64,000 nt of DNA, from positions 1 through 64,000 of the forward strand of contig JAPDJT010000016.1 in assembly GCA_029258955.1 (NCBI GenBank), read 5' to 3'. Source of the DNA: Thermoplasmatota archaeon (GTDB taxonomy: Archaea; Thermoplasmatota; E2; UBA202; JdFR-43). The notes under the pieces were generated by a model. It had not been told where the DNA came from and made no database searches. It was given only the letters and a program-made list of their open reading frames with translations. Both the position numbers and the translations under genes were made by a program. The first letter of the stretch is position 1; every line of letters begins with the position of its first letter. This document shows, piece by piece, positions 12,001 through 61,339 of this stretch.

Positions 12001-12112
12001 TATTTCATGTTCATTTGCTATTATTGCATAAGAAATTACAATCCACTATGTGTATTGGGATTTACTGTAGCAACATTCCAATTTTTTTATTTATTTTTTC
12101 ATATAAAAAACG
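12001..12112 (-). repeat. Dispersed hairpin repeat, copy 3 (expanded)
   Basis: On the minus strand it reads TTGGAATGTTGCTACAGTAA, and after about 25 extra bases ATGCAATAATAGCAAATGA, then CATGAAATAAA. The whole 11,880-12,200 gap holds no gene; it contains three repeat copies. Confidence 0.5.
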
Positions 12113-12124
12113 AGGTTATCCAAA

Positions 12125-12198
12125 AATAAATGAAATGGATGTTGTCACAGTAAAATTCCTCCAATGCAATAGGATAATGACAACCTTTTCTTTCACTT
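12125..12198 (+). repeat. Dispersed hairpin repeat, copy 4, abutting IS110 remnant 1
   Basis: AAATAAATGAAATGGATGTT starts the copy. The inner stem GTTGTCA/TGACAAC is perfect, and the right arm is CTTTTCTTTCACTTA. The insertion-sequence remnant begins within about 7 bases of its end, after TTTTCGACACC. Confidence 0.8.
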
Positions 12199-12204
12199 AA
12201 TTTT

Positions 12205-13027
12205 CGACACCTATGTAAAGCCCGCCTGTTTTATATGCAATTTCAATTTTTATGCCTTATGATATACACCTATTCGTGGCAAAGCCACATTATGCCTACT
12301 TCATCCATAGCTAAGAAGCTCCAATTATTGCAACATTTTCATGTTTTCCTTTTCTCTTTAGCTTTCTATAAAATTCTGTTATTTTGCTATGCCCACAATA
12401 AACTTTATCTCCAGATTTATGAACTGATGGAACCAATCCAGCATAAGAAAATATTTTCTTTTCATCTAGAAATCTATTTACATCTCCTATCTCTGCCAAT
12501 ATAACTAATGCTGAAAATGTTGTTGCTGACAAGCTTTTTAAGCAATTTTACTTCTTTAAATTTCTTTTCTTCTTCCTTTAATCTTTTATCCATCTTCTTT
12601 ATCTCTTCTTCCAATTTTTCCATTATAGATAGATATGTTTCTATTGCTGGAATTTTTAAGCTATGTAGCCATTTTCTTCCAGATTTAGTAAAAATATTCT
12701 CTGCCTAACTAATCTCTTAACTCCCTTATTTCCTTTGGAGGAATCCATGATGTTGGCAACAAATTTCCTCTTGTTAAATCTGCCAATATTTTTGCATCAG
12801 CTATAGCTCTTGTTCTTAATGGATGTGCCACTAAAACTTCATAGCCTTCTTTTACTAAAGCATCTACAATGTAGCTATAGTTTGTAGATGCTTCTATAGC
12901 TACTTTTACATTCTTTAGTCCATAAAAGAATTCTCTTATTTCTTTTTCTTCTTATGCACATCCATACCTGCATACAACATTTTACCGCCTCCTTCATGCT
13001 TATATGGAGCGGGCTTTAACATGTCGT
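12205..13027 (-). mobile_element. IS110-family element remnant 1 (internally deleted)
   Basis: The ends carry imperfect inverted repeats, ATGTAAAGCCCGCCTG at the left and, read on the minus strand, CATGTTAAAGCCCGC at the right. Between them lies a broken IS110-type transposase on the minus strand. The element is about 820 bases, shorter than an intact member. A second, shorter relative lies at 60,904-61,236 with near-identical ends. Its left edge touches a hairpin repeat. Confidence 0.8.
12311..12980 (-). pseudogene. IS110-family (DEDD/transposase 20) transposase, degraded
   Basis: It starts at ATG 12980 with a strong GGAGGCGG site: MLYAGMDVHKK, then a frame change near 12,950. It continues through EIREFFYGLKNVKVAIEAS and an RTRAIADAKILADLTRG stretch, a broken coiled middle, and the C-terminal domain GDVNRFLDEKKIFSYAGLVPS. 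After GHSKITEF it jumps to YRKLKRKGKHENVAI, implying loss of about 35 residues. Several stops and shifts mean it cannot be active. Confidence 0.85.
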
Positions 13028-13082
13028 CATCAAACCCCATAAAAACAGAAAGCTTAATAAGGTAAAATCTAATACTCATAAC

Positions 13083-13319
13083 ATGCCAGTAGTGGGTTTC
13101 GTTTTGATTTCAACAGCTCCAGCAAAAGAGCATCAAGTATATAATGAACTACTTAAAATAAAGGAGATTGTTGAGCTCCATCCTTTATTTGGAGAATATG
13201 ATTTAATTGCAAAAGTTGAAGTAAATGATTTAGAAGAGTTAGGAAAAGTAGTTGTTGAGAAAATACGCTCCATAGATGGGGTTGCAGATACTAAAACCCT
13301 TACTGGCACAAAATTTTAA
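13083..13319 (+). CDS. Stand-alone Lrp/AsnC ligand-binding (RAM) domain protein
   Basis: A 78-residue RAM domain without a DNA-binding part. It contains GFVLISTAPAKEHQVYNEL, the LFGEYDLIAKVEVND strand-turn and a final GVADTKTLTGTKF. Such proteins are oligomeric amino-acid sensors that can pair with full Lrp-type regulators. It is followed after 12 bases by a membrane protein with a good ribosome site. CTTAATAAG upstream may be the TATA box. Confidence 0.85.
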   Translation: MPVVGFVLISTAPAKEHQVYNELLKIKEIVELHPLFGEYDLIAKVEVNDLEELGKVVVEKIRSIDGVADTKTLTGTKF

Positions 13320-13331
13320 GGAGGTGAAAAA

Positions 13332-13634
13332 ATGGGTCCATATATGCAGTTGTTTGTGAGCATGCTTTTGCTTGTGTTTGCAATTGGAACAATACTTGCA
13401 GGAGCATTTACAATATACTTTGGTTCTGGAAGAAGCCGAGCAATAGGGAGTATATTGTTTCTTATAGGCATAATAGTTGCTCTAATATTTTACAACTACA
13501 GTGGTGGAGAACTATGGGGAGAAAGAGAATGGACATGGGAAATTGTTAAGGCAGGAATAGCATCAATTATTGGAGGTATAATAGGGGCATTGGTGGCATT
13601 GGGTGTATTCTTGGCAGGAATAATGAAGGCTTAA
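13332..13634 (+). CDS. Small three-helix membrane protein
   Basis: A 100-residue protein with helices at about 6-28, 36-54 and 72-97 and a short hydrophilic loop rich in Trp and Glu (GGELWGEREWTWE). AAGGAGGTGA seven to eight bases before the ATG is a strong ribosome site. It is translationally coupled to the nitroreductase (TAA immediately followed by ATG). No known family is recognised. Confidence 0.6.
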   Translation: MGPYMQLFVSMLLLVFAIGTILAGAFTIYFGSGRSRAIGSILFLIGIIVALIFYNYSGGELWGEREWTWEIVKAGIASIIGGIIGALVALGVFLAGIMKA

Positions 13635-14165
13635 ATGGATGTAAAAGAAGCTATAGAAAAAAGACGCTCTATAAGGAAATACAAAAAACAACCTATTGAG
13701 CGAGAATTAGTTGAGAGATTACTCCATTATGCAAATTTAGCACCTTCTGCAGGAAATTTGCAAGCAAGAGATTTCATTATTGTTGATGATGAAAATGTAA
13801 AGAAAAAGTTAGCAAGAGCTGCTTACAATCAAAAATTTATTGAGGAAGCTCCAATTGTTGTTGTATTTTGTGCAAACTTACAAAGAATAGCCCCTTATGG
13901 ACAAAGAGGAATAAACTTCTATTGCCTGCAAGATGTTGCAGCAGCTATTCTAAATTTCTTGTTAGTGGCAACATCTGAAGGACTTGCTACATGTTGGGTA
14001 GGAGCTTTTGACGATGAAGAAGTTGCAGAAATTTTAGAATTGCCACCACATATAAAGCCAGTTGCAATTGTGCCTGTTGGTATTGGTGATGAAAAGCCAA
14101 TTAAAACAGAGAGATATGATTTGAAAGAGCTGATACACTACAACAAATGGGGAGGCAAGATTTAA
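13635..14165 (+). CDS. Nitroreductase-family FMN oxidoreductase
   Basis: A 176-residue flavoprotein. RRSIRKYKKQPI and APSAGNLQARDF are the FMN-phosphate-binding motifs at the N-terminus, and the DVAAAILNFLLVATSEGLATCWVG region is the central helix and flavin-binding loop. The family reduces nitro groups, quinones or flavins; the substrate is unknown. ATG directly follows the stop of the membrane protein, so they form one operon with the RAM-domain gene. Confidence 0.92.
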   Translation: MDVKEAIEKRRSIRKYKKQPIERELVERLLHYANLAPSAGNLQARDFIIVDDENVKKKLARAAYNQKFIEEAPIVVVFCANLQRIAPYGQRGINFYCLQDVAAAILNFLLVATSEGLATCWVGAFDDEEVAEILELPPHIKPVAIVPVGIGDEKPIKTERYDLKELIHYNKWGGKI

Positions 14166-14473
14166 CAAATCTCTTCCAGAATATCTATTTTTTCCTTTAT
14201 AATTTTACAAATTCTGCAGATTTCCTTTACTGCATCTTCTCCATTTAAAATTGCATTGGCTGATTTTTCTATCTCGCCATTAATTTCATCACTAAGCTTA
14301 ACATTTCCTCCTCTTTTATCAGTTATATATTGAGAAATTGCTGCATTACTTACTCCAAGTTTTTCCGCAATTTCCTTTTGGCTAAGCCCCTTGCCAAGTA
14401 AATTTTTTGCAAGTTTTTTTCTAATGCAAGGCAGTACAGTCCAAACTATCATTTCACAAGGTGTCTTTTTCAT
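14162..14473 (-). CDS. HTH transcriptional regulator (COG2522-like)
   Basis: A 103-residue protein from the ATG at 14473 (MKKTPCEMIVWTVLPCIRK). The XRE-type helix-turn-helix is GLSQKEIAEKLGVSNAAIS, followed by QYITDKRGG and a C-terminal helix with Cys residues (EICRICKIIKEKI). The 7-codon longer form is less like family members. Its end overlaps the convergent nitroreductase by four bases. Target genes are unknown. Confidence 0.85.
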   Translation of the reverse strand: MKKTPCEMIVWTVLPCIRKKLAKNLLGKGLSQKEIAEKLGVSNAAISQYITDKRGGNVKLSDEINGEIEKSANAILNGEDAVKEICRICKIIKEKIDILEEIC

Positions 14474-14501
14474 GAAAATTAAATCAATTAACAATATTAA
14501 A

Positions 14502-14666
14502 TTATTCCTTCTCTCTCCACAGTCCTATGAAATGACAATTCTCACATTCATATGCAACAGCTTCTTTAATCCATTCCGGAATTTTTATGAACGGCAAAGA
14601 AGGTATCTCAAATTCGCTCAACATTTTATTCATTTTTCCATTACAAATAGGGCATAATTTTTCCAT
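14502..14666 (-). CDS. Small zinc-ribbon protein (54 residues)
   Basis: A short gene on the minus strand starting MEKLCPICNGKMNKML and ending FIGLWREKE. Two cysteine pairs, CPIC and CENC, are spaced as in a zinc ribbon. It ends about 30 bases before the HTH regulator and is transcribed divergently from the DNA ligase, sharing the AT-rich 14,667-14,700 promoter region. Homologous zinc ribbons commonly accompany archaeal HTH genes; the function is unknown. Confidence 0.65.
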   Translation of the reverse strand: MEKLCPICNGKMNKMLSEFEIPSLPFIKIPEWIKEAVAYECENCHFIGLWREKE

Positions 14667-14700
14667 AAAGGTAATTTACTTGCTAAATTTAATATTTGGG

Positions 14701-16152
14701 ATGGATTTAAAAGATTTGATTTCTATAGCAGAAAAATTGAAATCTACTGCAAAGAAAAAAGAAAAAATAGCTATTGTTGCAAATTTTATAAAAAATTTAA
14801 GAGAAGAAGAAATTGAACCAGCTATCAATTTACTTTTAGGCAATTTACCAAAAATAAATGTTGGGTATGCAACTATTGCAAAGTTTCAAAAAGTATTGCC
14901 ATTTGAAAAAATTCCTAAGGACGTTAAATCAATTTATTCTTATCTTATTAAAATTGGGGAAACATCAAAAGAAAAAGAAAAGGAAAGCATGCTTTCTGCT
15001 TTGCTTTCTCAACTTGATAGTAAAGAAAGAGAATTTATAATAAATGCATTACTTGGAGAGCAAAGACATGGTGTAAGCCAAGGTTTATTTTTAGAAGCAA
15101 TTGCAGACGCATTTGGCTATACAAAAGAAAACATTGAAAAAGCTTATTTGATATCCTCCCTGCCAGAAATTTTGAGTTATGCGAGAAAAAATGAATTGGA
15201 CAAAATAAAAGTTAAACTATATAAGCCAATAAAGCCAATGCTTACAGATATGGCAAAATTTGAGGATTTAAAAGGAACATATTGTGTAGAATATAAATTT
15301 GATGGAATAAGAGCACATTTGCATATTGGAAACAAAGGAATAAAAATATTTTCTAGGAATCAAAGAGAAATAACAGACTATTTTCCAGAAATTGTTGAAG
15401 AAATGAAAAGTATAGATGGAGAAGTTATTTTAGATGGCGAGATAATTGCATTTAAAGACAAACCATTGCCCTTTCAGGAACTCATGAAAAAATTCAGGAA
15501 AGAGAAAAGCATGGATATTCCAACTAAATTATATTTGTTCGATATTCTTTATAAAGATGGAAAAGAGCTTCTTGATTTACCTTTTGAAAAAAGAAGAGAA
15601 ATTTTAAAAGAGATGGCTTCCTCTTATCTTCCACCACATATTATTACCAATAAGCCTGATGAAATGAAAAAATTTTTTGAAAAAGCTGTTAATGAAGGCT
15701 TTGAGGGAATTGTGGCAAAAGATGTAAAAAGCAAGTATAGGCTGAGAAGAGGTTGGTATAAAGTAAAGAAGAGTCATTCCTTAGATGTAGCTATTATTGC
15801 TGCAGAATGGGGGCATGGGCGCCGTTATAAATGGCTAAGCGACTACTGGCTTGCTGTTTTAGATAATGGTGAATTTCATATGGTGGGCAAGACATTCAAG
15901 GGGCTAACTGATGAGGAGTTTGAGGAAATTACAAAGGAATTGCTTAAAAATAAGGTAAGAGAGGAGGGAAGAGTTATTTTTGTAAAGCCGACTATAGTTG
16001 TGGAAGTGGAATTTGATGACATACAAAAAAGTGATAGATATGGATATGCCCTAAGATTCGCAAGAGTAAAAAGAATAAGATGGGACAAAGATGTAAATGA
16101 AATAAACACCCTTGAAGATGTAAAGAAGCTATATAAGGAAATGAAAAAGTAA
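14701..16152 (+). CDS. lig: ATP-dependent DNA ligase (archaeal/eukaryotic type)
   Basis: A 484-residue ligase. The nucleotide-binding Lys199 lies in motif I (EYKFDGIRAH). Motif III is LYLFDILYKDG, motif IV GFEGIVAKD and motif V WYKVKK. A C-terminal OB-fold follows (VEVEFDDIQKSDRYGYALRF). The N-terminal DNA-binding domain is short: Lys199 is earlier than the usual approximately 240-250. The ATG at 14701 is preferred because AAATTTAATATTT precedes it and the upstream 38 in-frame codons look like the divergent gene's region. It seals Okazaki fragments and repair nicks. Confidence 0.93.
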   Translation: MDLKDLISIAEKLKSTAKKKEKIAIVANFIKNLREEEIEPAINLLLGNLPKINVGYATIAKFQKVLPFEKIPKDVKSIYSYLIKIGETSKEKEKESMLSALLSQLDSKEREFIINALLGEQRHGVSQGLFLEAIADAFGYTKENIEKAYLISSLPEILSYARKNELDKIKVKLYKPIKPMLTDMAKFEDLKGTYCVEYKFDGIRAHLHIGNKGIKIFSRNQREITDYFPEIVEEMKSIDGEVILDGEIIAFKDKPLPFQELMKKFRKEKSMDIPTKLYLFDILYKDGKELLDLPFEKRREILKEMASSYLPPHIITNKPDEMKKFFEKAVNEGFEGIVAKDVKSKYRLRRGWYKVKKSHSLDVAIIAAEWGHGRRYKWLSDYWLAVLDNGEFHMVGKTFKGLTDEEFEEITKELLKNKVREEGRVIFVKPTIVVEVEFDDIQKSDRYGYALRFARVKRIRWDKDVNEINTLEDVKKLYKEMKK

Positions 16153-16634: not shown

Positions 16635-16736
16635 CTAAAAAGAAAATATCTACAATATAAAAAATTTGTCAAATAAGATTCATCGAAAATTAATGATGAT
16701 TTTTTCATTTGCCAGAAAAACCTTCGGGTCTGTCGA

Positions 16737-16816
16737 AAATTAAATGAAATAGGGTATTGTCATAGTAAGTTCTCTTTCAGGCAATAGTGACCAATAATAG
16801 CCATTTCTTCTATTTG
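16737..16816 (+). repeat. Dispersed hairpin repeat, copy 5
   Basis: AAATGAAATAGGGTATTGTC begins the copy. Inner pairing is GG-TATT/AATA-CC, and the right end is CCATTTCTTCTATTT. TGTCGAAAAT just before it matches the TCGA flank seen at other copies. Confidence 0.65.
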
Positions 16817-16847
16817 TTCAACAAACCCAATACCTTCCTTCACAAAA

Positions 16848-26768: not shown

Positions 26769-26863
26769 TTATTATGAAATGATTGGAATTATGCCAACAA
26801 TGGTATTAACTTCGCAAAAATTAGCAAACAAAATCCAATTCATTTACAATTTTAACGTTGTCG

Positions 26864-26946
26864 AAATAAATGAAATAGGATGTTCTCATAGTAATTCATC
26901 CCTTTGCATAATAGCTAATGACAACCTTTTCTTCCATTTATTCATT
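26864..26946 (+). repeat. Dispersed hairpin repeat, copy 6
   Basis: GTCGAAATAAATGAAATAGG begins the copy. Inner arms are GTTCTCAT and ATGACAAC with one mismatch. The right end is TCTTCCATTTATTCATT. It fills the gap between tRNA-Thr and the Asp-box protein. Confidence 0.75.
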
Positions 26947-26987
26947 AAACTCGGTTTTAACAAAAAATTAATAAAAAGAGGGAAGAG

Positions 26988-60689: not shown

Positions 60690-60737
60690 AGAAGAAAATG
60701 GTCATCTGGTATAAATAATTAGCCTAAATGATGTTTG

Positions 60738-60815
60738 AAAAATGAAATGGATTGTGTAATAAATTAGCATTTTCAATCGAATTACAACCAATGACATTTA
60801 ATTTTTCATTTATTC
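60738..60815 (+). repeat. Dispersed hairpin repeat, copy 20
   Basis: AAAAATGAAATGGATTGTGT, TTACAACCAATGACATTTAA and TTTTTCATTTATTC. Confidence 0.65.
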
Positions 60816-60827
60816 ATTGCATACGAA

Positions 60828-60900
60828 AATAAATGAAATGGGATGTTGTTATAGTAAATTCCCATGCAAAGGCCAATAACAACATTTTCTTCCATTTTTT
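60828..60900 (+). repeat. Dispersed hairpin repeat, copy 21 (best preserved), abutting IS110 remnant 2
   Basis: AAATAAATGAAATGGGATGT starts it. The inner stem TGTTGTTAT/ATAACAACA is 9 bp and perfect; the right end is TTTTCTTCCATTT. The insertion remnant begins within about 5 bases. Confidence 0.85.
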
Positions 60901-60903
60901 TTT

Positions 60904-61236
60904 CGACCACCCATGTAAAGTCCGCCTGTTTTATATGCAGTTTTTAATTTTATCACTTTTAATTTTTGCATCAGCTATAGCTCTTGTTCTTAATGAATGT
61001 GCCACTAAAACTTCATAGCCTTCTTTTACTAAAGCATCTACAATGTAGCTATAGTTTGTAGATGCTTCTATAGCTACTTTTACATTCTTTAGTCCATAAA
61101 AGAATTCTCTTATTTCCTTTTCATTTGTTCTTATTTTTCCTTTTCTTACAACTTCTCCTTCTTATGTATATCCATACCTGCATACAACATTTTACCGCCT
61201 CCTTCATGCTTATATGGAGGCGGGCTTTAACATGTC
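60904..61236 (-). mobile_element. IS110-family element remnant 2 (short deletion derivative)
   Basis: The left end CCATGTAAAGTCCGCCTG and the right end GGAGGCGGGCTTTAACATG match remnant 1. Only about 330 bases remain. It keeps both ends and the N-terminal coding part, with most of the transposase removed, like a MITE in the making. Confidence 0.8.
60960..61190 (-). pseudogene. IS110 transposase N-terminal fragment
   Basis: From ATG 61190: MLYAGMDIHKKEKL, stop, then in a shifted frame VVRKGKIRTNEKEIREFFYG and STNYSYIVDALVKEGYEVLV, ending after RTRAIADAKI. The DEDD domain is incomplete and the C-terminal domain missing. Confidence 0.8.
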
Positions 61237-61339
61237 ATCAACCCCAAAAATTGCATACGAAAAATGAAGGAAAGGCTGTTACTGTTGGAAAATGCAACTT
61301 ATACACAAAATATTATATCTTTTTCAATATTCTTTTCCT

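What the first reader, a model, noticed from the sequence alone, without database searches (positions are those of the whole stretch)
60828..61236. IS110 remnant 2 repeats the same arrangement with the best hairpin copy
At a second, independent place the same IS end follows the same repeat with the same flank, TTTTTCGACCACC. Two of two is unlikely by chance. Either the IS targets hairpins, or the hairpin is part of the element (for example its non-coding RNA end) that also spreads alone.
Basis: partly seen in the sequence, partly recalled or inferred. Interest (0 to 1): 0.72.

Follow-up and report, generated by a model that had tools for sequence, protein, structure and literature searches.

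The report
RNA-guided jumping gene inside mini-transposons
In an archaeal genome, an RNA-guided jumping gene (IS110/IS1111 type) has repeatedly inserted itself five bases inside the end of a small hairpin-shaped mini-transposon that is scattered through the genome in about 150 or more copies, apparently because its guide RNA carries the sequence of that end; this kind of behaviour is known from bacteria, and the specific pair appears new.

Summary
At 60816-61258 a decayed IS110-type element (60910-61240, minus strand) sits against a palindromic repeat, as does remnant 1 (12109-13038). In the window's own genome 12 of 13 intact right ends abut this repeat (about 1% of the genome).

The hairpin is outside the IS. 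It is a separate, roughly 102-bp miniature transposon (MITE): terminal repeats GGGTTTGTYGAA, 9-bp target-site duplications, at least 149 copies in this genome, 3 in a same-genus genome, none found in five others. The IS lies inside the MITE, 5 nt from its end (GGGTT^TGTCGAAAAA). MITE duplications bracket MITE plus IS at another locus (GAAGCTTTT, 9/9) and at this finding (GTATGCAAT, 60816-60824 and 61250-61258).

An intact relative (Ca. Thermoplasmatota S4B5_HD70) shows IS1111 anatomy: a 326-aa DEDD transposase and a downstream non-coding region of about 170 nt whose stem-loop carries both halves of the target (GTCGAAAAA, GGGTTTG). Right guides match their own flanks best of 1,680 assignments.

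So this is an archaeal IS1111-group element, apparently guide-RNA-programmed to a transposon's terminal repeat, as IS4321/IS5075 are found in Tn21. New member of a known kind; moderate interest. Mechanism is inferred from sequence only.

The parts
60816..60824 (.). Left copy of the 9-bp target-site duplication of the MITE (ATTGCATAC on +, GTATGCAAT on -)
   Evidence: Exact 14-nt direct repeat 60816-60829 / 61250-61263; 9/9 at the MITE's duplication length, 0 of 72 cross-pairings of other copies reach 9
60825..60909 (-).
   Evidence: Covariance-model hit 60812-60911, 95.6 bits; imperfect inverted repeat 60826-60852 / 60876-60902
60910..61240 (-). IS1111-group IS110 remnant, 331 bp; right end CCCATGTAAAGTCCGCCTG at 60910-60928, left end ending ..ACATGTCATCA at 61240; transposase middle and the guide-RNA region are deleted
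   Evidence: Nucleotide match to the intact G001:C15 element 86%; ends defined from 28 left and 18 right junctions
60940..61192 (-). Truncated IS110 transposase reading frame (starts MLYAGMDIHKK; N-terminal DEDD part only, frame-disrupted)
   Evidence: Match 60940-61167 to the transposase, E 4e-39, one stop
61241..61249 (-). Outer tip of the MITE left beyond the IS left end (GGGGT on -, preceded by TTTT)
   Evidence: 28-junction left-flank profile G, G/A, G, T/G, T at -5 to -1, no preference further out
61250..61258 (.). Right copy of the 9-bp MITE target-site duplication (ATTGCATAC)
12109..12209 (-). MITE carrying IS remnant 1
   Evidence: Covariance-model hit 12109-12212, 99.6 bits
12210..13032 (-). 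IS1111-group remnant 1 (frame-shifted transposase; guide stem-loop deleted)
   Evidence: PF02371 match 12383-12514
13033..13038 (-). Outer tip of the MITE (GGGGTT on -) beyond remnant 1
16726..16828 (-). IS-free MITE of the young subfamily, with duplications GAAGGTATT / GAAGGTTTT; an unoccupied target site in the window
   Evidence: 96% to the young consensus; 8/9 duplication
26851..26953 (-). IS-free MITE copy
   Evidence: 88.4 bits
11003..11107 (-). IS-free MITE copy
   Evidence: 61.2 bits
34001..34097 (+). IS-free MITE copy
   Evidence: 54.6 bits

Best explanation
The feature is a decayed copy of an IS1111-group IS110 element inserted 5 nt inside the terminal repeat of a pre-existing MITE. 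SHOWN from sequence: the hairpin repeat is a MITE of about 102 bp with its own ends (GGGTTTGTYGAA...TTCGACARACCC) and 9-bp duplications; the IS (TGATGACATGTTAAAGCCC...GGGCTTTACATAGG) starts and stops at the same point inside that end, GGGTT^TGTCGAAAAA, without duplicating bases, at either MITE end; in the intact relative the non-coding region after the transposase folds into a stem-loop whose two internal strands match the right side (complement of GTCGAAAAA) and left side (GGGTTTG) of the MITE end; different guide versions match different right flanks. INFERRED from the characterised family: that region is transcribed as a guide (seek/bridge) RNA, the DEDD transposase binds it, a circular intermediate forms, and base-pairing with both strands places the IS. 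The high MITE copy number offers many near-identical landing sites, which would explain the local abundance of the IS; later internal deletions left remnants such as this one.
For: 12 of 13 right ends in the genome abut the MITE at the same base, against about 1% expected from MITE coverage. Left flanks read G, G/A, G, T/G, T then random in 28 junctions. IS-free MITEs show the uninterrupted end and 9-bp duplications: 9 of 25 with at least 7/9 match, shuffled mean 0.58, maximum 3 in 2,000; six perfect at length 9 against 0-1 at other lengths. Duplications bracket MITE plus IS at C24 (GAAGCTTTT) and at this finding (GTATGCAAT), 9/9 each, while no cross-pairing reaches 9. Intact element with 326-aa transposase: PF01548 and PF02371, NF033542 254.8 bits, IS621 8wt6 E 1e-18. 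Guide stem-loops fold with z -4.4 to -5.3. Right-guide matches 8, 9, 8, 8, 8, 7, 8, 8 of 9, best of 1,680 assignments. The adjacent MITEs are more diverged (mean identity 62%) than the IS ends (79%) across copies.
Against: No orthologous empty site for this exact insertion: synteny with the same-genus genome breaks here. The window copies have lost the guide region, so the guide is read from relatives and sister copies. Left-guide matches are weaker (60 of 1,680 permutations do as well) and fail outright for the type C copy at C3:101k (0 of 7). Of nine copies examined with both ends, only two show a duplication clearly better than cross-pairs. The 9-bp duplication here implies a MITE whose outer tips differ from the consensus.
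Confidence: 0.92

Rival explanations
1. The hairpin is part of the IS (its right end or non-coding RNA end), and solo copies spread as a derivative of it.
For: The hairpin follows nearly every right end in this genome, and right-end hairpins exist in other IS families.
Against: The same IS lies at non-hairpin sites in G001 (2 of 3) and AUK146 (2 of 2). IS ends are more conserved than the adjacent hairpins. The hairpin has its own 9-bp duplications without any IS. The IS enters either hairpin end (orientations). The RNA region is inside the IS.
Confidence: 0.03
2. The IS recognises DNA hairpin structure, not sequence, in the manner of single-strand transposases.
For: Most copies in this genome are at palindromes.
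Against: Junctions fall on one base in a defined sequence, sister copies use that sequence without a hairpin, and guide loops encode it and vary with the flank.
Confidence: 0.02
3. The association is a by-product of a few ancestral IS insertions later copied with their surroundings (segmental duplication or recombination between repeats).
For: Most copies are decayed; one left junction is shared with G001:C20, so some insertions are old.
Against: Flanks beyond the MITE differ at every junction, and the adjacent MITEs are diverged from one another.
Confidence: 0.03

Closest known systems
[quoted passage not shown]
   Same: An IS1111-group element inserts at a fixed point inside the terminal repeat of another transposon.
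   Different: Here the host is archaeal (Thermoplasmatota), the target is a MITE of about 102 bp with at least 149 copies, and the guide sequence for that end can be read in the element's non-coding region.
ISPa11, ISPpu9, IS621 and others in REP palindromes (Tobes and Pareja, PMC1525189; PMC11187229; PMC11208160; PMC8450116)
   Same: IS110-family elements that insert into an abundant extragenic palindrome, by guide RNA where tested.
   Different: The palindrome here is a MITE with terminal inverted repeats and 9-bp duplications; the insertion is at its outer end.
ISEc11 / ISXne4 seekRNA elements (PMC11187229)
   Same: Non-coding region downstream of the transposase; top-strand complement precedes bottom-strand match; natural reprogramming between relatives.
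   Different: Different targets; experimental proof exists there, none here.

Membership tests
IS110 family, IS1111 group | DEDD (RuvC-like) transposase with C-terminal Transposase_20 domain | tested here: met
   PF01548 E 1.9e-25, PF02371 E 1.8e-26; NF033542 254.8 bits over a cut-off of 140; acidic DEDD positions and a serine align with IS621 (which residues are catalytic is from my own knowledge)
IS110 family, IS1111 group | Long non-coding region downstream of the transposase (right end), short left end | tested here: met
   About 50 nt before the ATG, about 170 nt after the stop in the intact element
IS110 family, IS1111 group | Subterminal inverted repeats | tested here: met
   Left ATGTTAAAGCCCGCCT, right (reverse complement) ATGTAAAGCCCGCCT, 7 nt and 3 nt from the ends
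IS110 family, IS1111 group | Fixed target, no added target duplication | tested here: met
   Left and right flanks join to the uninterrupted MITE end
IS110 family, IS1111 group | Guide RNA with top-strand complement first, then bottom-strand match | tested here: met
   Order TTTTTCGAC ... GGGTTTG; right-guide covariation. Sequence only; the RNA itself was not observed
IS110 family, IS1111 group | RNA bound to transposase; circular intermediate | not testable with these tools
   Needs expression experiments
IS110 group proper (guide RNA in left end) | Long left non-coding end | tested here: not met
   Left end about 50 nt
MITE | Terminal inverted repeats, short, no ORF, multicopy | tested here: met
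   At least 149 copies of about 105 positions; ends GGGTTTGTYGAA / TTCGACARACCC
MITE | Target-site duplication of fixed length | tested here: met
   9 bp
MITE | Autonomous partner with the same ends | tested here: inconclusive
   None found with the young consensus in this genome, which is an incomplete assembly
REP / BIME palindromes | Short palindrome that does not carry target-site duplications | tested here: not met
   9-bp duplications
REP / BIME palindromes | Linked RAYT (REP-associated tyrosine) transposase | not tested
   No search for RAYT genes was run

The most novel reading that the evidence does not exclude
The IS tracks the MITE: its guide loop changes to follow MITE end variants. 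Two different guide types in this genome (A, GTCGAAAAA; C, GAAAGAATC) each match the right-side end of the MITE variant next to them, so the MITE bloom would act as an evolving landing platform that drives natural reprogramming of an archaeal guide-RNA transposon.
Probability: 0.2. Interest if true: 0.6.

Novelty: new member of a known kind. Interest (0 to 1): 0.4.

Why it matters
It extends guide-RNA-programmed insertion into transposon ends to a little-studied archaeal lineage, and gives a natural set of at least three guide versions with their targets from which the recognition register can be read. A MITE present in at least 149 copies offers an unusually rich pool of occupied and empty sites to measure tolerated mismatches. 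It also shows how one selfish element can supply landing sites for another.

Tried and rejected
The hairpin as the RNA end of the IS: rejected (IS copies without it; own duplications). The hairpin as an Rfam family: no hit. Hairpin significance from folding alone: not significant (z -0.6 and -0.7). Search for a longer autonomous MITE parent with the young consensus: only MITE-sized or fragmentary hits, e.g. C4:58643, a variant of about 120 bp. Orthologous empty site for this insertion in G001: synteny is broken, and the flanking genes lie on two contigs without MITE or IS. The G001:C15 site has a syntenic right flank in G000:C18 that lacks both MITE and IS, but its left flank is not syntenic, so it is only half an empty site. 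The 392-aa IS110 transposase gene at C1 is a different element.

Full report
WHAT IS THERE. The window lies in a 1.7-Mb, 49-contig archaeal genome (G000; 94% complete, 7.3% contamination). The nearest held relative, same genus, is Candidatus Thermoplasmatota archaeon S4B5_HD70 (G001). At 60816-61258 there are, from left to right on +: a 9-mer ATTGCATAC, an 85-bp hairpin repeat, an internally deleted IS110 element on the minus strand, nine bases ending the hairpin unit, and ATTGCATAC again. Remnant 1 at 12109-13038 has the same order of hairpin and IS. The two flanks are similar, not identical: CGACCACC here and CGACACC there; the exact 13-mer occurs once in the genome.

THE IS. A search of the genome found many decayed copies of the IS and dozens of isolated hairpins. 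Lining up left and right junctions gives the ends TGATGACATGTTAAAGCCCGCC... and ...GGCGGGCTTTACATAGG. An intact copy exists in G001 (L076:971-2168, about 1,198 bp). Its 326-aa transposase matches both Pfam IS110 domains, NCBIfam's RNA-guided IS110 transposase and the solved IS621 transposase, with the DEDD and serine positions aligned. The left end is about 50 nt and the right non-coding region about 170 nt, with subterminal inverted repeats 7 and 3 nt from the ends. This is IS1111-group anatomy as described in PMC11187229 and PMC11208160.

THE HAIRPIN IS A MITE. A covariance model built from 15 copies found at least 149 in G000 (the search scored only 150 candidates), 3 in G001 and none in G002, G006, G018 or the AUK146 and AUK162 genomes. 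Printed with flanks, many copies show ends GGGTTTGTYGAA and TTCGACARACCC followed by duplications. Of 25 copies with both ends recognisable, 9 have 9-bp duplications matching at 7 or more positions (shuffled mean 0.58, maximum 3 in 2,000). Perfect duplications number six at length 9 and 0 or 1 at lengths 4-8 and 10-12. A young subfamily has about 17 copies at 90-99% identity. So the hairpin moves, or moved, on its own.

THE IS IS INSIDE THE MITE. In G000, 12 of 13 right ends continue directly into the MITE (10 by model hit, C24:341 by a weak model hit, C15 by eye with a rearranged MITE; the exception is C8). MITE coverage is about 1%. Left flanks in 28 junctions read G, G/A, G, T/G, T at positions -5 to -1 with no preference further out, i.e. 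only the last five bases of the MITE remain on that side. Joining the sides gives GGGTT^TGTCGAAAAA, the uninterrupted MITE end. The IS enters either MITE end (orientation of the model hits relative to the IS). The strongest single proof is C24:19273-20037: GAAGCTTTT-GGGAGAC-[IS]-TGTCGAAAAATAAATG...CATCAAACCC-GAAGCTTTT, a perfect MITE duplication outside MITE plus IS. The finding itself has the second such case, GTATGCAAT on both sides; none of 72 cross-pairings reaches 9/9. The other seven copies examined show nothing clearly better than cross-pairs, as expected for old, decayed loci.

HOW THE TARGET IS CHOSEN. In the intact element the region after the stop codon folds into GGCTAAGAA...TTCTTAGCC, with an internal loop on each side of a small hairpin. 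The 5' side reads CTCTTTTTCGAC, the complement of GTCGAAAAA; the 3' side reads GGGTTTG. These are the two halves of the MITE end, in the order reported for IS1111 seekRNAs (PMC11187229). Three other guide versions were found: in G001:C20, in G000 C3:101k and C24:46, and in G006. Each right guide matches its own flank at 7 to 9 of 9 bases, and the true assignment is the best of 1,680. Left guides are weaker, and the one at C3:101k does not match at all. Registers were chosen by eye after seeing the flanks, but one register serves all four types. In AUK146 the same IS sits at GGGGTTG left flanks and TGTCGAAAAA or TGTTGATTATT right flanks with no hairpin, so sequence, not hairpin shape, is recognised.

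WHAT IS INFERRED. Transcription of the guide, its binding to the transposase, the circular intermediate and the recombination chemistry are taken from the characterised family, not shown here. The window's two copies have lost the guide stem-loop and have broken transposase genes, so they are dead as autonomous elements.

COMPARISON. IS1111-group elements in transposon terminal repeats (IS4321/IS5075 in Tn21) and IS110-family elements in REP palindromes are established. I found no report of a MITE in Thermoplasmatota and none evident for an IS110-MITE pair in archaea (titles and abstracts only; a library of open papers). I therefore file this as a new member of a known kind.

LIMITS. No orthologous empty site for this exact insertion was available because synteny breaks there in G001. 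The autonomous partner of the MITE was not found.

Noticed in passing
G000 C8:33554, C8:43136, C8:66637, C8:69906, C6:64192, C10:65244, C28:10905, C30:6692 (loci L038-L049, L057, L192): Eight copies of the MITE lie inside another decayed repeat (GCTGGGATAAGAGGATTTGCG[MITE]TTATTGGGGATAAG) whose remains look like a DDE (IS6-like, by eye only) transposase gene; the MITE seems to have hitch-hiked when that element multiplied.
   Followed up: partly
window 12948-14927 and G001:C20:23645-25592: Remnant 1 and the G001:C20 IS copy share the same left junction next to the same gene, but the right flanks differ (MITE here, TGTAGCACAATTT there), which suggests IS-mediated rearrangement in one lineage.
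   Followed up: partly
window 60690-61290: Synteny break: the flanking epimerase-like and deoxyhypusine-synthase-like genes (named by eye) lie on two separate contigs of the same-genus genome.
   Followed up: partly
G000 C2, C24, C30, C32 contig ends: Several assembly contigs end inside IS copies, so more (perhaps intact) copies are probably missing from the assembly.
   Followed up: no
window 61247-61339: Half of a second MITE-like sequence (CGAAAAATGAAGGAAAGGCTGTTACTGTTGG) right of the IS, weak model score 18.5 bits; MITEs may be clustered here.
   Followed up: no
G000 C4:58643-58670 (locus L261): A variant of about 120 bp with the young MITE's exact first 28 bases but a different interior (GGGTTTGTTGAACAAATAGAAGAAATGG...TTGACAGTCCCG).
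   Followed up: partly
G000 C1:4219-5397 (locus L032:703-1881): A separate, intact 392-aa IS110-family transposase gene; its sequence is only distantly related to the MITE-associated element (28% identity over part).
   Followed up: no
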